Source: Huberarchaeum crystalense [NCBI: Candidatus Huberarchaeum crystalense] (lineage in GTDB: Archaea > Huberarchaeota > Huberarchaeia > Huberarchaeales). From it: a stretch of 5,490 bases of DNA. Below, piece by piece: positions 1 through 5,337 of the stretch; positions within the stretch are counted from its first letter, which is position 1, and each line of letters begins with the position of its first letter. Location: NCBI GenBank assembly GCA_002790315.1, contig PFUW01000041.1, positions 1 to 5,490 of the forward strand, read 5' to 3'. Below the pieces are notes generated by a model. The model was given only the letters and a program-made list of their open reading frames with translations, did no database searches and was not told the origin of the DNA. A program made the translations under genes and the position numbers.

Positions 1-655
1 CAGCAGAATAAGCAGCAGCAGAAGATAAATAAGAAAAAATTAAGCTAAAAACTGCAGGATACCACCGCATAAATACTGTTAAAAATACTGAAAGAAAAAA
101 GAACAAAAAAGAAAGCACGGCTGCGACTATGTAAAGCCCAGATTCAAAAGAAGTTATGTTTTTATTTTTATCACAAGCAATACTATATAAATTTTCAAAG
201 CTTTTTTTATATGTATCCCACATATTGTTTGTCAAGATACTATATCCAAAAACAAACGAAAACGCTGATTTAGATGAGTTTATAAATGTCTTGTTCGCCT
301 CATCACAATTATTCAGCATATAGTTTTGAATTGACGCGCCCATCTGTACACTAGCAATCTTAAAACTCTCTATTGAGTCAGTTATTTCTTGCATAAAAAG
401 ATCTATTTTACAAGCACCAGGAGTTGTAAGGCAGGTTTGAAACATCTCTACCCCACCCCCTATTTTGCAAATCGGGCTAAAAAAAGGTGATTCACAAATC
501 TTATCAAAAGACTCTACAGCCTTACTAATATCTCCTAAAAATGTATAAACCATTAAGCCAACAAATATAAAAAATACAAATAATAAGTAAATAGGGCTAA
601 TTTCTTTATTGTTTGATGAAGGTGACGGCATAAACTTTTGTATAACAAATGCCAT
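1..655 (-). CDS. Uncharacterised membrane protein with Cys-bearing loop, 3' end missing (runs off window)
   Basis: An open frame of 218 codons starts at an ATG at 655 and has no stop before the left edge, so only the N-terminal part is present. I do not recognise the family. Residues about 22-40 form one hydrophobic segment after a polar start. Residues 41-172 are a soluble loop with six cysteines (C54, C63, C75, C82, C117, C161). Residues about 173-195 are a second strong membrane segment, with more hydrophobic sequence (about 199-215) after an M-R-W-Y-P turn. The loop holds three N-X-S/T sequons (N121, N126, N166), which together with the cysteines suggests it is extracytoplasmic and possibly disulfide-bonded and glycosylated; that is inference. 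A 10-bp palindrome (TTTGATCAAA) lies 5 nt before the ATG and there is no clear Shine-Dalgarno. M9 is an alternative start. The thiol-redox genes nearby are plausible partners. Confidence 0.75.
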   Translation of the reverse strand, partial: MAFVIQKFMPSPSSNNKEISPIYLLFVFFIFVGLMVYTFLGDISKAVESFDKICESPFFSPICKIGGGVEMFQTCLTTPGACKIDLFMQEITDSIESFKIASVQMGASIQNYMLNNCDEANKTFINSSKSAFSFVFGYSILTNNMWDTYKKSFENLYSIACDKNKNITSFESGLYIVAAVLSFLFFFLSVFLTVFMRWYPAVFSLIFSYLSSAAAYSA

Positions 656-660
656 AAAAA

Positions 661-670
661 TTTGATCAAA
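661..670. repeat. 10-bp perfect palindrome next to a start codon
   Basis: TTTGATCAAA is fully self-complementary and sits 5 nt upstream of the ATG at 655. It could be an operator or simply chance in AT-rich DNA. The related string ATAATCAAATAA occurs twice in the adjacent duplication. Confidence 0.35.
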
Positions 671-691
671 AACTTCTGCTTAACTTATTGC

Positions 692-747
692 AAAGAGTAA
701 ATAATCAAATAAATAATGTAAAGAGTAAATAATCAAATAATTTATGT
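692..747. repeat. 28-bp tandem duplication upstream of tRNA-Asn
   Basis: Positions 692-719 and 720-747 are direct tandem copies of 28 bp. The first 21 bases (AAAGAGTAAATAATCAAATAA) are identical, and only two of the last seven differ. The pair fills the 117-bp spacer between the divergent tRNA and the membrane gene at 655, so it duplicates promoter or operator DNA for one or both. It looks like a recent slippage or unequal-exchange event. Confidence 0.85.
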
Positions 748-767
748 AGATTTATTTGTATAAATCT
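741..767 (+). promoter_or_regulatory. Candidate tRNA promoter with inverted repeat
   Basis: TTTATGTA at 741-748 is a TATA-like box about 28 bp before the mature tRNA 5' end, a reasonable distance for archaeal TBP/TFB. It overlaps an inverted repeat: AGATTTA (748-754) and TAAATCT (761-767) with a 6-nt loop. On the minus strand the same hairpin could help stop transcripts that read through the tRNA from the operon ending at 846. Neither role is proven by the sequence. Confidence 0.35.
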
Positions 768-772
768 GCGTT

Positions 773-845
773 GCCAGAGTAGCTCAGTAGGTAGAGCGAC
801 TGACTGTTAATCAGTAGGTCGTAGGTTCGAATCCTTCCTCTGGCG
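773..845 (+). tRNA. tRNA-Asn (anticodon GTT)
   Basis: A full cloverleaf can be folded. The acceptor stem GCCAGAG (773-779) pairs perfectly with CTCTGGC (838-844) and G845 is the discriminator base. The D-stem is GCTC/GAGC (782-785, 794-797) with GG in the loop. The anticodon stem is ACTGA/TCAGT around the loop CTGTTAA, giving anticodon GTT at 806-808, which reads Asn codons. The variable loop is 816-820 and the T-loop is TTCGAAT (826-832). No CCA is encoded and there is no intron. One oddity: the T-stem GTAGG/CCTTC has a U-U mismatch at its second pair (positions 50:64 in standard numbering). The gene lies tail to tail with the minus-strand reading frame that stops at 846. Confidence 0.95.
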
Positions 846-1348
846 CTAAATCGAATTTAAATGTGACAACATCAAATCTAAAAGTAAATCTAATTTTTGC
901 GTAATTGGTTCTTTAGACAATAAACCAAAAACATATATCTTATACTTTTTACGCAATTCAGTATAATTTATTATATTATCTTCTTCAATAGAATACTCTG
1001 ATTTTTTTATAACATTTGCAATAAGTATCTTATATTTATATTTGCAATAAATATTATCTTTCTTTGTTTGAATTGTAAATTCATTATTTTTGTATATATT
1101 TTAATTAAGTTTTTTATTTGCTCTTCTGTTGGCGTTAATTCTTCATATTTTTCACCTGTTTTATAGTCTTGGTAACAATTTCTATTATAATCTGTAGAAA
1201 CAATTATTTTTACCATATCCTTATCTAAATGATAATGTTTTATGGCAAGCATACTTATAAGTAAAAAAATAGGAAAATAATTTTTATTTAATAAATTAGA
1301 AGGTGTGTTTTTAAAATAATTATAATTACCTCCCTCATTATTTTCCAT
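846..1348 (-). CDS. Uncharacterised protein, split by an apparent one-base frameshift
   Basis: The first part reads from the ATG at 1348 (M-E-N-N-E-G-G) in a frame that would otherwise stop at 1007. In the neighbouring frame an open stretch runs from 1100 to a TAG at 848-846. It reads like real protein and has no good early start of its own. Adding one A to the A5 run at 1091-1087 (minus strand) joins the halves into a single 167-residue protein. The product is basic, rich in Lys, Ile, Tyr and Asn, with one hydrophobic patch near residues 20-33; I recognise no family. A TTG at 1399 would extend it upstream and overlap the thioredoxin gene by 14 nt. I prefer the ATG, 37 nt after that gene's stop. 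It is the last gene of the cluster and its stop touches the tRNA. The break may be a sequencing error, a real pseudogene, or less likely recoding. Confidence 0.6.
894..898 (+). terminator. Possible U-tract terminator for the tRNA
   Basis: A run of five T lies about 50 nt past the tRNA 3' end. Archaeal RNA polymerase often stops at short U-tracts. This one lies inside the opposite-strand gene, so termination here would create an antisense overlap. Confidence 0.25.
1087..1091 (-). other. Probable frameshift site in homopolymer
   Basis: This is an A5 run on the minus strand. Upstream codons read A-C-A, A-A-A in one frame; downstream codons A-A-T, G-A-A, T-T-T belong to the frame shifted by one base. 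A sixth A would restore one continuous reading frame. The upstream stop in the second frame (1103-1101) limits the shift to a window between about 1100 and 1080. Confidence 0.55.
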
Positions 1349-1385
1349 AATATGTTTATATTTAAAAGCAGATATATTGCCAAAT

Positions 1386-1910
1386 TTACTTGCCTTCAAC
1401 TCTACACTTATCTACAAAATCAATCAGCGCCTCTTTGTTTTGCTTTCCTATTTTTGTTTTTCCGCTTCCATAGCATATAAATGTAGGAATTGAGTGAATA
1501 TTTGGGTACTTCACTGCAATGAGTTTTCCTATTTCTGTGTTAGTTTCTGCATTTACTATTGGATAACCTGCTTGGATTAATTCATTTACAATTGGTTTCA
1601 TTGTTTGGCAATGTTGGCACCAATTTGCGTGAAAGAAAATCACTGTGTTTTCTGACAATTCTACATTGGTTTGAGTTGTAGTATTCATCGCATTTTGGCT
1701 TTGATTATTGATTTTAATTATATTATTTTTTCCATAAACTTCATTAATATATAACAACAAAAAACCAGAACCTATAACAACAATTCCAAAAATTATACTT
1801 ATAAATACTAACAACAACATATTTTTCTTTACTCTAATAAACTCTTTTGCTTTCTCTACTATTGTTTTGTCAGGTGCGTACACTTCTGTTTTTTTGCTTT
1901 TTGTTGCCAT
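1386..1910 (-). CDS. Membrane-anchored thioredoxin-fold protein (WCQHC)
   Basis: This is a 174-residue protein starting at M-A-T-K. Residues 1-30 are a basic cytoplasmic tail and residues about 31-55 form one membrane helix. A polar linker with sequons at N69 and N76 follows. Residues about 86-172 are a thioredoxin domain: strand T-V-I-F-F-H-A-N, then W97-C98-Q-H-C101 followed by Q-T-M-K-P, and the cis-proline motif S-I-P142-T-F. The Cys-X-X-Cys pair implies dithiol-disulfide exchange, and the N-in anchor places it outside the cell membrane. Q-H between the cysteines is closer to the oxidase/isomerase-like G-H or P-H pairs than to thioredoxin G-P, but reduction or oxidation cannot be decided from this. 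C146 and C169 are extra cysteines. The ATG at 1910 is chosen because it lies 4 nt after the upstream 38-aa gene's stop; a TTG at 1952 would add 14 unlikely residues overlapping that gene. Confidence 0.9.
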   Translation of the reverse strand: MATKSKKTEVYAPDKTIVEKAKEFIRVKKNMLLLVFISIIFGIVVIGSGFLLLYINEVYGKNNIIKINNQSQNAMNTTTQTNVELSENTVIFFHANWCQHCQTMKPIVNELIQAGYPIVNAETNTEIGKLIAVKYPNIHSIPTFICYGSGKTKIGKQNKEALIDFVDKCRVEGK

Positions 1911-1914
1911 ATTT

Positions 1915-2031
1915 TTAGAATTTAACAACCATAACCACAAGTACAAGAACAAGAAGAATGATAACTATCCCTACTATTACTGACTTGTCAGTAAGTGCGT
2001 CCTTGAATTGTTGAAATTTGTCTTTTTCCAT
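1915..2031 (-). CDS. 38-residue single-pass membrane protein
   Basis: This small gene starts at an ATG at 2031 and ends with TAA at 1917-1915. The first 16 residues are charged and polar (M-E-K-D-K-F-Q-Q-F-K-D-A-L-T-D-K). Residues 17-36 are an uninterrupted Val/Ile/Leu membrane helix, and the protein ends in K-F. It starts 1 nt after the stop of the upstream thioredoxin-like gene and stops 4 nt before the ATG of the next one, the spacing of a translationally coupled operon. I know no family for it. Its position suggests a partner or anchor for the two redox proteins, for example a membrane adaptor, but that is inference. A predicted cytoplasmic amphipathic N-terminal segment with an N-in helix is the simplest topology. 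An 8-bp inverted repeat is embedded in its coding sequence at 1977-1994. Confidence 0.75.
   Translation of the reverse strand: MEKDKFQQFKDALTDKSVIVGIVIILLVLVLVVMVVKF
1977..1994 (-). repeat. Perfect 8-bp inverted repeat inside the small membrane gene
   Basis: TTACTGAC (1977-1984) and GTCAGTAA (1987-1994) are separated by 2 nt. In the minus-strand mRNA this folds as a 7-bp stem with a CAAG tetraloop, about 67 nt before the next gene's ATG. It could be an mRNA structure tuning expression or processing between the redox genes, or a DNA site. Confidence 0.5.
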
Positions 2032-2032
2032 A

Positions 2033-2530
2033 TTATTTTTGCTTATCTTTTGGTTTTGAAAGTGAAAGCAAGGCCTCATCTGCGTGGCTGCGGCACAAAT
2101 AAATAAATTGACTCATTAAATCTCGTGACACTGCGCGGCCTACAAAACCAATGCGTGGATTGCTTGCACAAAACATTAAAGGAACACCATCACTAACATA
2201 TTGACCATAACAACCAAGTATTTTTTTAAATTCTGTGCTGTTCTTGTCAATATAATCAATTTTTATAAAAGTAATACTTTGGTTTTCCCAATATTTTACT
2301 TCTTCTAACATCACTTCACACACATCGCAATATACTGATGAATAAACATATATAATTGAATTTGGATTTATTCCTTCGCTAATAGCGCACTTATAATCTT
2401 CAAACCATATTTTATTATTATCCTGCATATCTGATGTTCCGCCACTTGACCAAAAAACAACTGAGCTAGCAAGGAGCATAATCGCTACTAAAATAACGGC
2501 TATTTTAGAAATGTTATTTTGATTTTTCAT
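2033..2530 (-). CDS. Membrane-anchored or exported thioredoxin-fold protein (CDVC)
   Basis: This is a 165-residue protein with an ATG at 2530. Residues 1-9 are short and basic; residues 10-27 form a hydrophobic helix that acts as a signal anchor or signal peptide. It ends near W-S-S-G-G with no lipobox Cys. The rest is a thioredoxin-like fold: strand I-I-Y-V-Y-S-S, active site Y-C68-D-V-C71, strand T-F-I-K-I-D, and the cis-proline motif D-G-V-P117-L-M-F. Cysteines at 48, 107, 121 and 146 are additional, an unusually high number. Sequons occur at N83 and N97. The fold and Cys-X-X-Cys pair support an extracytoplasmic thiol-disulfide role; partner and direction are unknown. The active site differs from its downstream paralogue (WCQHC), which may mean different redox potentials or a relay. 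It heads the tightly spaced cluster and its stop is 1 nt from the 38-aa gene. Confidence 0.85.
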   Translation of the reverse strand: MKNQNNISKIAVILVAIMLLASSVVFWSSGGTSDMQDNNKIWFEDYKCAISEGINPNSIIYVYSSVYCDVCEVMLEEVKYWENQSITFIKIDYIDKNSTEFKKILGCYGQYVSDGVPLMFCASNPRIGFVGRAVSRDLMSQFIYLCRSHADEALLSLSKPKDKQK

Positions 2531-2554
2531 AATCTTTTTATATCAAGTTTAGAG

Positions 2555-2582
2555 AAATTTTGCTTATTTGCAAAGCAAATAA
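2555..2582 (-). promoter_or_regulatory. Candidate promoter/operator of the thioredoxin cluster with 8-bp palindrome
   Basis: TTATTTGC (2564-2571) and GCAAATAA (2575-2582) form a perfect inverted repeat with a 3-nt AAA spacer. On the minus strand it lies immediately upstream of AAAATTT (2555-2561), a weak TATA-like box centred about 28 bp before the ATG at 2530. A palindrome just upstream of the TBP/TFB site is a typical place for an archaeal regulator. No T-run follows the stem, which argues against a terminator. Confidence 0.4.
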
Positions 2583-2590
2583 CAATATAG

Positions 2591-2669
2591 AAAAAATAAA
2601 TTTACAAAAAAGGTATGTGTTGTTGTAAAAAATAATAAACTTGCAAAATAAATAGTAACAGTAACTATT
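2591..2669 (-). terminator. Terminator region after the platform gene
   Basis: On the minus strand, downstream of the TAA at 2670-2668, there is a short hairpin AATAGT/ACTATT (2651-2656, 2664-2669) that includes the stop codon. Three separate T6 runs follow (2632-2627, 2611-2606, 2596-2591). Repeated U-tracts are the usual archaeal termination signal. This suggests the thioredoxin cluster has its own promoter instead of being read from the platform gene. Confidence 0.5.
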
Positions 2670-5337
2670 AACTTATTACAAACACACCTGTTAATTGATT
2701 ACTAATTGCGCTGAAAATCATACTCATTCCAAACAAAATTACAATAAAAATAACAGTAGAAACAAGCATATTTCCTTTTAGTGATTCAGCAAACTTTAAA
2801 ATATCATCTCCATAGACAATATATGATGCAAAATAGCTTATAATAATAATACTAGTAATAAAATAAATACCAACAATAGCTGCAAAAAGATCTGGCGGAA
2901 GCGAATTATAAATCTTAAATCCAAACATTCCTGCTGATGTAAATGATGACATGCTACTTATTTCAGAAGTATCTGCTATAGAAAGTTCTGGCAAAGCCAT
3001 AATTAAATTAAAAACAGTTCCTATCAAAAACACAAAATTTATTATGGTCGCAGATATAAACGGCAAAAGTAGATAAATATTAATTTTCATTGAGCTTACT
3101 GTGTCTGCCATTTCTTGTTTAATTTGTGTATTTATCTTTTCCATATTGCGCAAATAAACAGAGAGCGATGCCAATGTGCGCGCAAGATTCTGCGAACCTT
3201 TATCAACTGTTTTTGCCACAATAATAAGCAAATCATAGATTAATTTTGATGGTGCATAATTTAGCGCACCTATTTCTGAATTATAAAGCGCGTCTTCAAA
3301 ATTCATTTTCAAAACAGTCATATTTTTTAAAACCCTATCAAAAAACACGCGAACTTCTGTTGTTTCTGTTGTATTTACAATGTGCTGTATGCTTGTTTCC
3401 AAAGGAAGACCGCGAAAAAGCAAAGTGCTTAATTGATAAAAAGAAACACTCAATTCGCGCTCAATTATGTCAACATTTTCAGACTCTTTTTTATATGCGT
3501 CAACAATCTTTCCTAAAATATTTCTAACAAACCAAACAATTGCAACAAATAAAGTAATTACAACAAAAATCCAAAGAATTGTTGTTTGTTTGATAAGATA
3601 TGAAATTGTTAGCTTTCCTACTGTTCCGTCTGCTAACATAATGTTTGCGCTAAAATTATGCTCCCCAACTAATCCACTAAATTGTTGTTGCGGGGGCAAT
3701 CTATACGAAACGCAATAAGCGTTAGTGTTTTCAACACAAGGAGCTATTGTAATTTGGTTTTTAAGTGCAGAAGCATTACCCAAAACATACTTTACTTTAT
3801 TTTCTTTTGAAAGACGCTCGTTTGTTATTTGCATAATATTTGAATTAAGGCCTTTAATAGTAAAATCTACTTTGTCTGATGGTAAAAAAGAATATTTATT
3901 AGAACTTACTTGCAAATTTAAATTTTTATCTTGAACAACATGAAGTCCTAGCGGAGAGTAAAATGCAGCAAAAAACACGAGCGCTGGCGAGGCAATAATT
4001 AATAAAATTACAACAAGTTTTATTATTTGAAATTTTGAAAGATTAAATTTAGACAGGTCTTGAGAAATCACACCTCCAAAACCAGGTCTATTACTAACTA
4101 AAATATAAACCACTATTAAAATAAAAAAAGGTAAAACAAGGTCATAAAGCAAGGCAAGATAACCTGGTTTTATTAATTCAGGCATAAACATTACAATCAT
4201 AGGAATCATTATACTAATCATCATTGGAAGCATAATACCCATCATATTTATTATATCTGTTGGAGTTTTTAATCCTTTTACAAAAAGTTGTGTATCATCA
4301 TGAATATCTTGAAGCATTGACTCCATTATATAATCATATCTCTTAATTCGGTCACTTTCAGTAGATTCAAAAAAAGACATTTGCACCTTTTCTAAACTGC
4401 TAACAAAAATAGGACTCCATTTTTTCCATTTTTTTATATATTCATCAAGCGCTGAATCTAGTGAAGAATATTTGGAATGAGATAAGTCCCACAAAATCTT
4501 TCGCAATTGATATGCTAATGGACCTTCTAATCGCGTGCTAGTAAAAAATAAAGCGTTTTCAAGCACAGGCTCATTTTTCAAATACACAATAATATAAAGC
4601 AAAGCAATTGGAGCTGTAAGGTTAAATTTTTGAATTGCGCGCTTTTCTTGAATAAAAGGATAATATATATAAAACAAAACAACCAACATACAAAAGATAA
4701 AAATAAGGCCAGCATAAATAATATCAGCAGCAAATACAAAAATTCCGAAACACAAAATAAGGCTCAAAACAAACAACAGAAAAGCCACAAAAACAACTTG
4801 GCGTGGAACAATCGAATATATATGAAGCATCTCAAATGCATTTATATATTTTTGCCCCCATTTTTTTGGTATCATAAATTTAAATATTCCAATCTTTTTA
4901 GTAATTTTTTCATAAAGTGTGTGGGGTTTTTGAAGCTCGTCAAACGATTTTTTAAACACATCATACGCCTCACGCGATTGAACTTGCCATTTAAATGATT
5001 CTTTATCAGATCTTTCTAATATTCCGCTGTATCTTTTAAAAATATTTGAAATTTCAGCAATGTCTGTGTCAATAGCAGAAGGTATATCTGCAATATTTGA
5101 GCCATTAGTCTTTCCTGTTTGTGCATCTTTTTTAGAGTTAGTATTTATTTTGTCTTCATTAAATATATCTTTTTTGATGTTATTATTTGTTTTGTCTTCA
5201 TTAAATATATCTTTTTTGATGTTATTATTTGTTTTGTCTTCATTAAATATATCTTTTTTGATGTTATTATTTATTTTATCTTTGTTTTTATCAAAGTTGT
5301 TATTTTTATCCCTGTCAGGCAATTTTGGTGCAATCAT
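2668..5337 (-). CDS. FlaJ/TadC-type (T2SSF family) pilus or archaellum platform membrane protein
   Basis: This 889-residue protein has the double F-domain layout of archaeal FlaJ/TadC-like platforms, the membrane core that couples a cytoplasmic ATPase to filament assembly. Residues 1-100 are a disordered Asn/Lys/Asp-rich tail with a 14-residue unit repeated three times (21-62) and a decayed fourth copy. Membrane helices lie near 180-203 and 205-229. F domain 1 is about 234-365 (P-V-L-E-N-A-L, then G-P-L-A-Y...R-K). Helices follow near 366-386, 393-414 and 438-462. Residues about 463-585 form an extracytoplasmic, probably beta-rich domain with C534 and C542 and sequons N521 and N561. A helix lies at 586-606. 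F domain 2 is about 626-750 (F-R-G-L-P-L-E-T-S-I, G-A-L-N-Y-A-P-S), with helices near 752-780, 816-842 and 856-880. The extra tail and outer domain make it longer than the usual FlaJ of roughly 550-650 residues. No ATPase or pilin gene is in view. The ATG at 5337 lacks a clear Shine-Dalgarno. Confidence 0.85.
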   Translation of the reverse strand: MIAPKLPDRDKNNNFDKNKDKINNNIKKDIFNEDKTNNNIKKDIFNEDKTNNNIKKDIFNEDKINTNSKKDAQTGKTNGSNIADIPSAIDTDIAEISNIFKRYSGILERSDKESFKWQVQSREAYDVFKKSFDELQKPHTLYEKITKKIGIFKFMIPKKWGQKYINAFEMLHIYSIVPRQVVFVAFLLFVLSLILCFGIFVFAADIIYAGLIFIFCMLVVLFYIYYPFIQEKRAIQKFNLTAPIALLYIIVYLKNEPVLENALFFTSTRLEGPLAYQLRKILWDLSHSKYSSLDSALDEYIKKWKKWSPIFVSSLEKVQMSFFESTESDRIKRYDYIMESMLQDIHDDTQLFVKGLKTPTDIINMMGIMLPMMISIMIPMIVMFMPELIKPGYLALLYDLVLPFFILIVVYILVSNRPGFGGVISQDLSKFNLSKFQIIKLVVILLIIASPALVFFAAFYSPLGLHVVQDKNLNLQVSSNKYSFLPSDKVDFTIKGLNSNIMQITNERLSKENKVKYVLGNASALKNQITIAPCVENTNAYCVSYRLPPQQQFSGLVGEHNFSANIMLADGTVGKLTISYLIKQTTILWIFVVITLFVAIVWFVRNILGKIVDAYKKESENVDIIERELSVSFYQLSTLLFRGLPLETSIQHIVNTTETTEVRVFFDRVLKNMTVLKMNFEDALYNSEIGALNYAPSKLIYDLLIIVAKTVDKGSQNLARTLASLSVYLRNMEKINTQIKQEMADTVSSMKINIYLLLPFISATIINFVFLIGTVFNLIMALPELSIADTSEISSMSSFTSAGMFGFKIYNSLPPDLFAAIVGIYFITSIIIISYFASYIVYGDDILKFAESLKGNMLVSTVIFIVILFGMSMIFSAISNQLTGVFVIS
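5151..5276 (-). repeat. Three tandem 42-bp coding repeats
   Basis: Units 5151-5192, 5193-5234 and 5235-5276 are tandem. The first two are identical and the third differs at one base. The period is 14 codons, so copy number can change without breaking the frame. The encoded unit is K-(T/I)-N-N-N-I-K-K-D-I-F-N-E-D. A degenerate fourth unit lies on the low-coordinate side (residues 63-76). Confidence 0.95.

What the first reader, a model, noticed from the sequence alone, without database searches (positions are those of the whole stretch)
1915..2031. Overlooked 38-aa membrane protein wedged between two thioredoxin genes
The short frame has a charged 16-residue head and a clean 20-residue membrane helix. 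It sits with 1-nt and 4-nt gaps between two membrane-anchored thioredoxin-fold genes. Such spacing is hard to explain unless it is translated. It is below usual gene-caller length cut-offs and may be an unrecognised partner of extracytoplasmic redox proteins.
Basis: partly seen in the sequence, partly recalled or inferred. Interest (0 to 1): 0.6.

Follow-up and report, generated by a model that had tools for sequence, protein, structure and literature searches.

The report
Tiny membrane protein between two thioredoxins
A 38-residue membrane protein gene sits tightly between two exported redox-protein genes in a tiny symbiotic archaeon; its DNA carries the start signal and codon pattern of a genuine gene, but no relative is known and its job can only be guessed.

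Summary
The frame at 1915-2031 (minus) is as described, in Ca. Huberarchaeum crystalense, a DPANN episymbiont. It is almost certainly a translated gene. Most Huberarchaeum ATG starts follow an A-rich 9-nt motif; the start at 2031 scores in the top 10% of 206 true starts, matched by 8 of 5,243 internal ATGs. Its codon score equals the gene mean. Using both, 0 of 740 decoy ORFs pass, against 9 of 433 others including this one and Sec61-beta (thresholds set after seeing the target). A synonymous-only test is inconclusive. Spacing (+1, +4 nt) fits translational coupling; the downstream thioredoxin has a weak start of its own. The peptide has no Cys, so it is no redox carrier. Best guess: a membrane adaptor or regulator made together with two exported thioredoxin-like proteins in a cell with giant Cys-rich proteins; that role is inferred. 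One genome of the phylum was reachable and 196 others gave no homologue, so conservation is untested. It is not below the common 90-bp gene-caller default. P0003's thioredoxin fold is likely, not shown.

The parts
1915..2031 (-). P0001: 38-aa single-pass membrane protein; head residues 1-16, TM helix 17-36, tail KF; no Cys
2032..2040 (-). Start motif AAAAATAAT directly before the ATG; it overlaps the last codons and stop of P0003
   Evidence: PWM 7.40; 9.7% of 206 true starts and 8 of 5,243 internal ATGs score as high
2033..2530 (-). P0003: 165 aa, N-terminal membrane anchor, CDVC; thioredoxin/glutaredoxin-like, fold not proven
1386..1910 (-). P0002: 174 aa membrane-anchored thioredoxin (WCQHC); weak own start motif (PWM -1.04) but strongly coding from its first codons
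1911..1914 (-). 4-nt spacer between the P0001 stop and the P0002 ATG
2531..2667 (-). Leader between P0004 and P0003; its part 2550-2611 is present twice in tandem in the reference strain
2668..5337 (-). P0004: 889-aa T2SSF-type (TadC/ArlJ-like, name recalled) membrane protein, upstream neighbour; not necessarily part of the same unit
   Evidence: (24.7 bits, just under cut-off 25.2)

Best explanation
P0001 is a genuine, translated 38-aa single-pass membrane protein, made from one mRNA with the two exported thioredoxin-like proteins P0003 and P0002. Ribosomes start on its strong A-rich motif (or re-start 1 nt after P0003's stop), end 4 nt before P0002 and re-start there, so the three products are made together (inferred from sequence). 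The peptide has no Cys and so cannot carry electrons. Its short head plus helix most likely acts as a membrane adaptor or regulator that holds the anchored thioredoxins together or near their client or reductant, serving disulphide handling in the Cys-rich surface proteins of this episymbiont (inferred). That it is a translated gene: about 0.93. The adaptor/regulator role given that it is a gene: a little under one half.
For: Gene: codon log-odds 0.157 against a mean of 0.155 for 275 ORFs of 150 aa or more; 1.2% of 1,029 out-of-frame ORFs reach it, 0 of the 14 with a TM. Start motif at 2031 scores 7.40, while the alternative 54-aa start scores -10.70. Joint test: 0 of 740 decoys, 9 of 433 others pass; 8 of the 9 were given to Pfam and two were confirmed over cut-off (Sec61_beta, GatD_N). 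By an ab initio scheme it ranks 7th of 33 small calls among 385. Coupling: in this genome gaps of -4 and +1 nt are the commonest (7 each of 29 close pairs), and close-following genes have weaker start motifs (mean 0.85, n=29) than others (4.24, n=179); P0002's is -1.04. In Haloferax a 22-nt gap abolished re-initiation in one native pair and 23 nt brought it near zero in two others, and 45.2% of pairs at -8 to +10 nt encode subunits of one complex against 5.6% at more than 20 nt (PMC10666635, abstract and passages). Context: predicted proteins with 174 and 93 Cys; large surface proteins, some Cys-rich, proposed for host contact (PMC6792436, passages). Model: helices 2-14 and 16-37, pLDDT 90. 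Precedent for a small archaeal membrane-located regulator: MtrR, 49 aa (PMC13370731, abstract).
Against: No homologue: 24 of 196 other genomes give a match at E 10 or better, the best at E 0.012 inside a 157-aa frame. No small TM ORF beside the thioredoxin at 29 loci of relatives. The synonymous-codon-only score (0.003) lies midway: 15% of null and 15% of coding resamples are as extreme. The thresholds of the joint test were chosen after the target's scores were known, and the codon score mixes amino-acid and codon choice. Amphipathicity of the head is not significant (p 0.12-0.39). Identity between strains carries no information on selection. The coupling paper found overlaps of -4 and -1 nt commonest and efficiency falling with any positive distance (in E. 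coli 2 nt already cost 5-70%), so +4 would couple only partly. Nothing shows contact with the thioredoxins. Small hydrophobic proteins are common among this genome's small genes (7 of the 9 have a KD19 of 2.2 or more), so neighbourhood alone is weak evidence of a redox role.
Confidence: 0.45

Rival explanations
1. Translated, but a stand-alone small membrane protein whose function has nothing to do with the thioredoxins; it merely shares their mRNA.
For: Of the 9 small ORFs passing the joint test 7 are hydrophobic (KD19 2.2 or more), and the other 6 of these lie in other neighbourhoods; no Cys; no recurrence beside thioredoxins elsewhere.
Against: The +1/+4 spacing to both neighbours is in the close range enriched for subunits of one complex in other archaea.
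Confidence: 0.25
2. A translational relay: the act of translating the frame carries ribosomes from P0003 to the weak start of P0002; the peptide itself matters little.
For: P0002's start motif is worse than 83% of true starts and lies 122 nt after P0003's stop, too far for re-initiation (by the Haloferax data) without an ORF in between; coupled genes in this genome show weak motifs.
Against: A relay does not need a clean membrane helix (0 of 20,000 shuffles gave a tight ORF with TM). P0001 has its own strong start. A second in-frame ATG in P0002 (1820) has a good motif, 5.37.
Confidence: 0.2
3. Not translated: a chance open frame.
For: No homologue and no expression data; synonymous test inconclusive; one apparently spurious ORF elsewhere in the genome fills a gap just as tightly.
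Against: Start motif, codon score, gap shuffles and decoy control together.
Confidence: 0.05
4. A minimal prepilin-like subunit linked to the neighbouring TadC-like protein.
For: T2SSF-type P0004 upstream, a prepilin peptidase in the genome (PF01478, 41.1 bits), a permissive consensus match DALT at residues 11-14 (consensus recalled).
Against: Charged D15 and K16 fall after the supposed cleavage, only 26 residues would remain, and there is no Glu at +5. A protein elsewhere in the genome that looks pilin-like by eye has a proper Gly site (L136:2956-3504; no Pfam match).
Confidence: 0.04
5. Part of a fusion made by +1 frameshifting (both junctions are in the +1 frame).
For: Frame relations.
Against: Strong separate start at 2031; a fusion with P0002 would put its thioredoxin domain inside the cell (inference).
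Confidence: 0.01

Closest known systems
Small membrane-located regulators of archaea such as MtrR of Methanosarcina mazei (49 aa; PMC13370731)
   Same: Very short, encoded by a small ORF, at the cytoplasmic membrane; MtrR binds and tunes a membrane-bound complex (abstract).
   Different: Different partner; P0001 is in an operon with exported thioredoxins. No sequence or topology comparison was made; the abstract does not say that MtrR spans the membrane.
Sec61-beta / SecE small translocon subunits
   Same: Short cytoplasmic head plus one C-terminal helix.
   Different: Huberarchaeum has both elsewhere (L128:1703-1852 PF03911 30.6 bits, cut-off 27; L115:1150-1329 PF00584 18.7 bits, below cut-off 22.7) and P0001 matches neither.
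Membrane-anchored extracytoplasmic thioredoxins (PF00085) with a CcdA/DsbD-type electron conduit
   Same: P0002 is such a thioredoxin; a 586-aa protein with an N-terminal thioredoxin-like part and NPC/ELPC membrane motifs (recalled as CcdA-like) exists at L093:6355-8115.
   Different: P0001 is not a thioredoxin and has no Cys. No DsbD_TM or VKOR was found by profile, and the CcdA likeness is by eye; PDB and NCBIfam searches gave it no support.

Membership tests
Translated small single-pass membrane protein (sORF-encoded) | Coding-like codon use and a genuine start signal | tested here: met
   the synonymous-only test was inconclusive
Translated small single-pass membrane protein (sORF-encoded) | One transmembrane helix | tested here: met
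   KD mean 3.58 over residues 17-36; helix 16-37
Translated small single-pass membrane protein (sORF-encoded) | Conserved in relatives | tested here: inconclusive
   No homologue in 196 other genomes, but only one genome of the phylum is held
Translated small single-pass membrane protein (sORF-encoded) | Product detected | not testable with these tools
   No proteomics or Ribo-seq
Thioredoxin PF00085 (P0002) | Score over curated cut-off, WCxxC | tested here: met
   42.4 bits vs 23.5; WCQHC
Thioredoxin/glutaredoxin fold (P0003) | Profile over cut-off or confident fold | tested here: inconclusive
   18 bits vs 88.55; no Pfam hit; model pLDDT 46.7
Sec61-beta / SecE (P0001) | Profile match; role not filled elsewhere | tested here: not met
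   No match; Sec61-beta and a SecE-like gene elsewhere
Class III (prepilin) signal peptide (P0001) | [KRDE][GA]-[ALIFQMVED][ILMVTAS] directly before a hydrophobic stretch (consensus recalled) | tested here: inconclusive
   DALT matches the letters, but charged DK follows before the helix
T2SSF (P0004) | Score over cut-off | tested here: not met
   24.7 vs 25.2 bits, just under; relatives in 30 of 60 other genomes, 26 of them with two or more matching stretches

The most novel reading that the evidence does not exclude
P0001 is an obligate, Huberarchaeota-specific transmembrane subunit that joins two exported thioredoxins into one complex dedicated to disulphide handling of the giant Cys-rich surface proteins with which this episymbiont contacts Altiarchaeum, its stoichiometry set by a +1/+4-nt chain of termination-reinitiation.
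Probability: 0.15. Interest if true: 0.55.

Novelty: new member of a known kind. Interest (0 to 1): 0.35.

Why it matters
It adds a well-supported orphan microprotein to a phylum with very few genomes, and shows that a genome-specific start signal can find such genes against decoys where conservation cannot be tested. If the partner role holds, it would be a small membrane subunit of an exported redox system in a host-dependent archaeon whose surface proteins are unusually Cys-rich.

Tried and rejected
Longer 54-aa start at 2079: rejected, start PWM -10.70. Sec61-beta or SecE: rejected. TTG start at 1952 for P0002, which would overlap P0001: rejected, since the 13-codon extension scores -0.318 while codons 2-30 from 1910 score 0.299. 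Internal P0002 start at 1820 has a good motif (5.37) but would discard the strongly coding first 30 codons. P0001 as a duplicate of P0002's anchor: a 9-residue hydrophobic match only (E 0.042). P0003 and P0002 as duplicates: no real similarity. Defence or phage families: none relevant. Solved structures: none for P0001; weak saposin hits for P0003 (E 0.02-0.2), taken as chance. P0004 and P0003 in viral contigs: no relatives. VKOR and DsbD_TM not found by profile in G001. Paper searches for DPANN with thioredoxin, cysteine-rich and disulfide, and for archaea with small membrane proteins, unannotated and thioredoxin: no paper held all terms. In the first gap census the target was missed because my gene caller took P0002's TTG start, with PWM-chosen ATG starts, includes it.

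Full report
What the window is. A protein search with P0004 returned one locus in the genome collection, contig PFSX01000030.1 of Candidatus Huberarchaeum crystalense, a DPANN archaeon. The window is another strain: over 2,941 bp 3 bases differ, and window 649-2611 is identical; the contig does not reach window 1-648. Only one genome of the phylum is held, so no informative orthologue was available. The describing paper reports about 0.5 Mbp, 11 genomes and an inferred episymbiosis with Altiarchaeum (PMC6792436, passages).

Observation. The frame, its strand, its length and the 1-nt and 4-nt gaps are as stated. P0002 is a thioredoxin by Pfam; P0003 is only probably thioredoxin-like. Upstream lies an 889-aa T2SSF-type (TadC/ArlJ-like, recalled name) protein, 24.7 bits against a cut-off of 25.2, with relatives in 30 of 60 other genomes searched. 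In 19 neighbourhoods of such relatives, from 18 genomes, phmmer at E 1 found no homologue of P0002 or P0003 among ORFs of 80 aa or more; some carry small CxxC proteins that I did not identify.

Is it a gene? I took the Huberarchaeum genome in stretches (76 loci, 474,383 bases) and trained on 275 ORFs of 150 aa or more, P0002-P0004 among them but not P0001. (a) Codons: the target's log-odds is 0.157 against a gene mean of 0.155; 1.2% of 1,029 out-of-frame ORFs of 34-60 aa reach it, and 0 of the 14 with a TM; 78% of 107 TM-bearing pieces of real genes score no higher. This score mixes amino-acid and codon choice. The synonymous-only version is 0.003, between the null (-0.067) and coding (0.055) expectations, with 15% of resamples as extreme on either side: inconclusive. 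(b) Start signal: ATG starts show a sharp motif at -9 to -1, A-rich (0.75, 0.79, 0.76, 0.61, 0.83 A at -9 to -5) with T at -1 (0.75), while -10 is at background (208 starts). With a matrix from the 206 starts outside this contig, the ATG at 2031 (AAAAATAAT) scores 7.40: 9.7% of true starts, 8 of 5,243 internal ATGs and 0.47% of all ATGs are as good. The longer 54-aa start scores -10.70. (c) Spacing: 0.04% of shuffled gaps hold an ORF this tight, none with a TM. Spacing alone is not proof, since the census also listed a 44-aa ORF with a non-coding-like score filling a gap as tightly, beside the genuine L39e. (d) Decoys: with PWM at least 4 and codon score at least 0.10 (thresholds set after the target's scores were known), 0 of 740 ORFs of 30-60 aa lying inside longer genes pass, and 9 of 433 others pass. 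Eight of these nine were given to Pfam (not L132:19170-19268) and it confirms two, Sec61_beta and GatD_N. Of four small genes that Pfam recognises (those two, SecE below its cut-off, L39e) two pass, so the filter is strict rather than sensitive. I put translation at about 0.93.

How it is translated. In this genome, genes that closely follow another (gap -20 to +10, n=29) have weaker start motifs (mean 0.85; 45% below 0) than the rest (n=179; 4.24; 18%), and the commonest gaps are -4 and +1 (7 each); starts were taken as the longest ATG frame, so a few long overlaps may be wrong starts. P0001 follows P0003 at +1 with a strong motif. P0002 follows P0001 at +4 with a weak one (-1.04), although its first codons are strongly coding (0.299). 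Without P0001, P0002's ATG would lie 122 nt after P0003's stop. In Haloferax, 22 nt abolished re-initiation for one native pair and 23 nt brought it near zero for two others, and pairs at -8 to +10 nt are 8.1-fold enriched for subunits of one complex; the same paper finds overlaps of -4 and -1 commonest and losses with small positive gaps (PMC10666635, abstract and passages). The chain P0003-P0001-P0002 is therefore probably co-translated at least in part. This is inference; no RNA or ribosome data exist here.

What it does. It has no Cys, so it cannot exchange disulphides. A single-sequence model gives helices 2-14 and 16-37 at pLDDT 90; the head's amphipathicity is not above shuffles. The cell has predicted proteins with 174 Cys in 2,291 aa and 93 Cys in 2,920 aa, a thioredoxin without a membrane anchor, and a 586-aa protein with an N-terminal thioredoxin-like part and NPC and ELPC membrane motifs that I recall as CcdA/DsbD-like, although no profile supports that. 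An exported thiol system acting on surface proteins is a reasonable setting, and a membrane adaptor or regulator is the role I find most likely. It stays a guess, because small hydrophobic proteins are a general feature of this genome's small genes, and no such ORF lay beside the thioredoxin at 29 loci of relatives (29 of the 39 places outside Huberarchaeum listed; many of these thioredoxins have no anchor).

Comparison and novelty. P0001 matches no family above cut-off in Pfam, NCBIfam, PHROGs or PADLOC, no solved structure, and nothing better than E 0.012 in 196 other genomes. It is an orphan of a known kind, the sORF-encoded small membrane proteins; one archaeal example located at the membrane, MtrR, tunes a membrane complex (PMC13370731, abstract).

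Side result. The A-rich 9-nt motif directly before the start codon was not seen elsewhere in the sequences I had: 141 starts pooled from fetched loci of genomes offered as relatives (unnamed, mixed G+C, few starts each) show a G-rich zone at -11 to -6 and no A-block, while Huberarchaeum keeps an anti-SD CACCTCCTT at its 16S 3' end with few SD-like hits (24 of 207 at -16 to -3; 8 of 207 at -30 to -17). It is present both in 179 starts without and in 28 with a close upstream gene, so it looks like a translation signal. My two paper searches on archaeal start motifs listed 15 of 178 and 6 of 6 papers; by titles and beginnings of abstracts none describes it. Passages of PMC5397173 hold no 'A-rich', and PMC1847833 mentions A-rich motifs for Bacteroides thetaiotaomicron. 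This is no proof that it is unreported.

Noticed in passing
G001 genome-wide (L043, L063-L137); window 2032-2040 as one instance: Sharp A-rich 9-nt motif (AAAWAWWWT) directly before ATG in most Huberarchaeum starts (T at -1 in 155 of 206), with and without a close upstream gene; not seen in 141 pooled starts of unnamed relatives, although the 16S anti-SD is present.
   Followed up: partly
window 2550-2611; L043:1902-2025: A 62-bp stretch of the leader before the thioredoxin genes is tandemly duplicated in the reference strain (1 mismatch between copies) and single in the window; real or an assembly effect.
   Followed up: partly
L093:6355-8115: 586-aa protein with signal or anchor, N-terminal thioredoxin-like domain (CSHC) and membrane segments with NPC and ELPC motifs: a possible CcdA/DsbD-type conduit missed by the DsbD_TM profile.
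   Followed up: partly
L102:19-6894; L078:979-9741: Giant predicted proteins with 174 Cys in 2,291 aa (frame begins at the contig's edge) and 93 Cys in 2,920 aa.
   Followed up: no
L075:7864-8028: 54-aa ORF that matches the GatD N-terminal domain alone (40.0 bits), possibly a split gatD.
   Followed up: no
L071:1164-1331; L127:2762-2905; L131:3372-3533; L136:3686-3850; L080:10250-10381: Other likely small membrane-protein genes in Huberarchaeum that pass the same decoy-controlled test; L071's lies 1 nt before the next gene.
   Followed up: partly
window 5125-5282: 42-bp tandem repeat (3.8 copies) in the N-terminal part of P0004, giving Asn/Lys/Asp-rich repeats.
   Followed up: no
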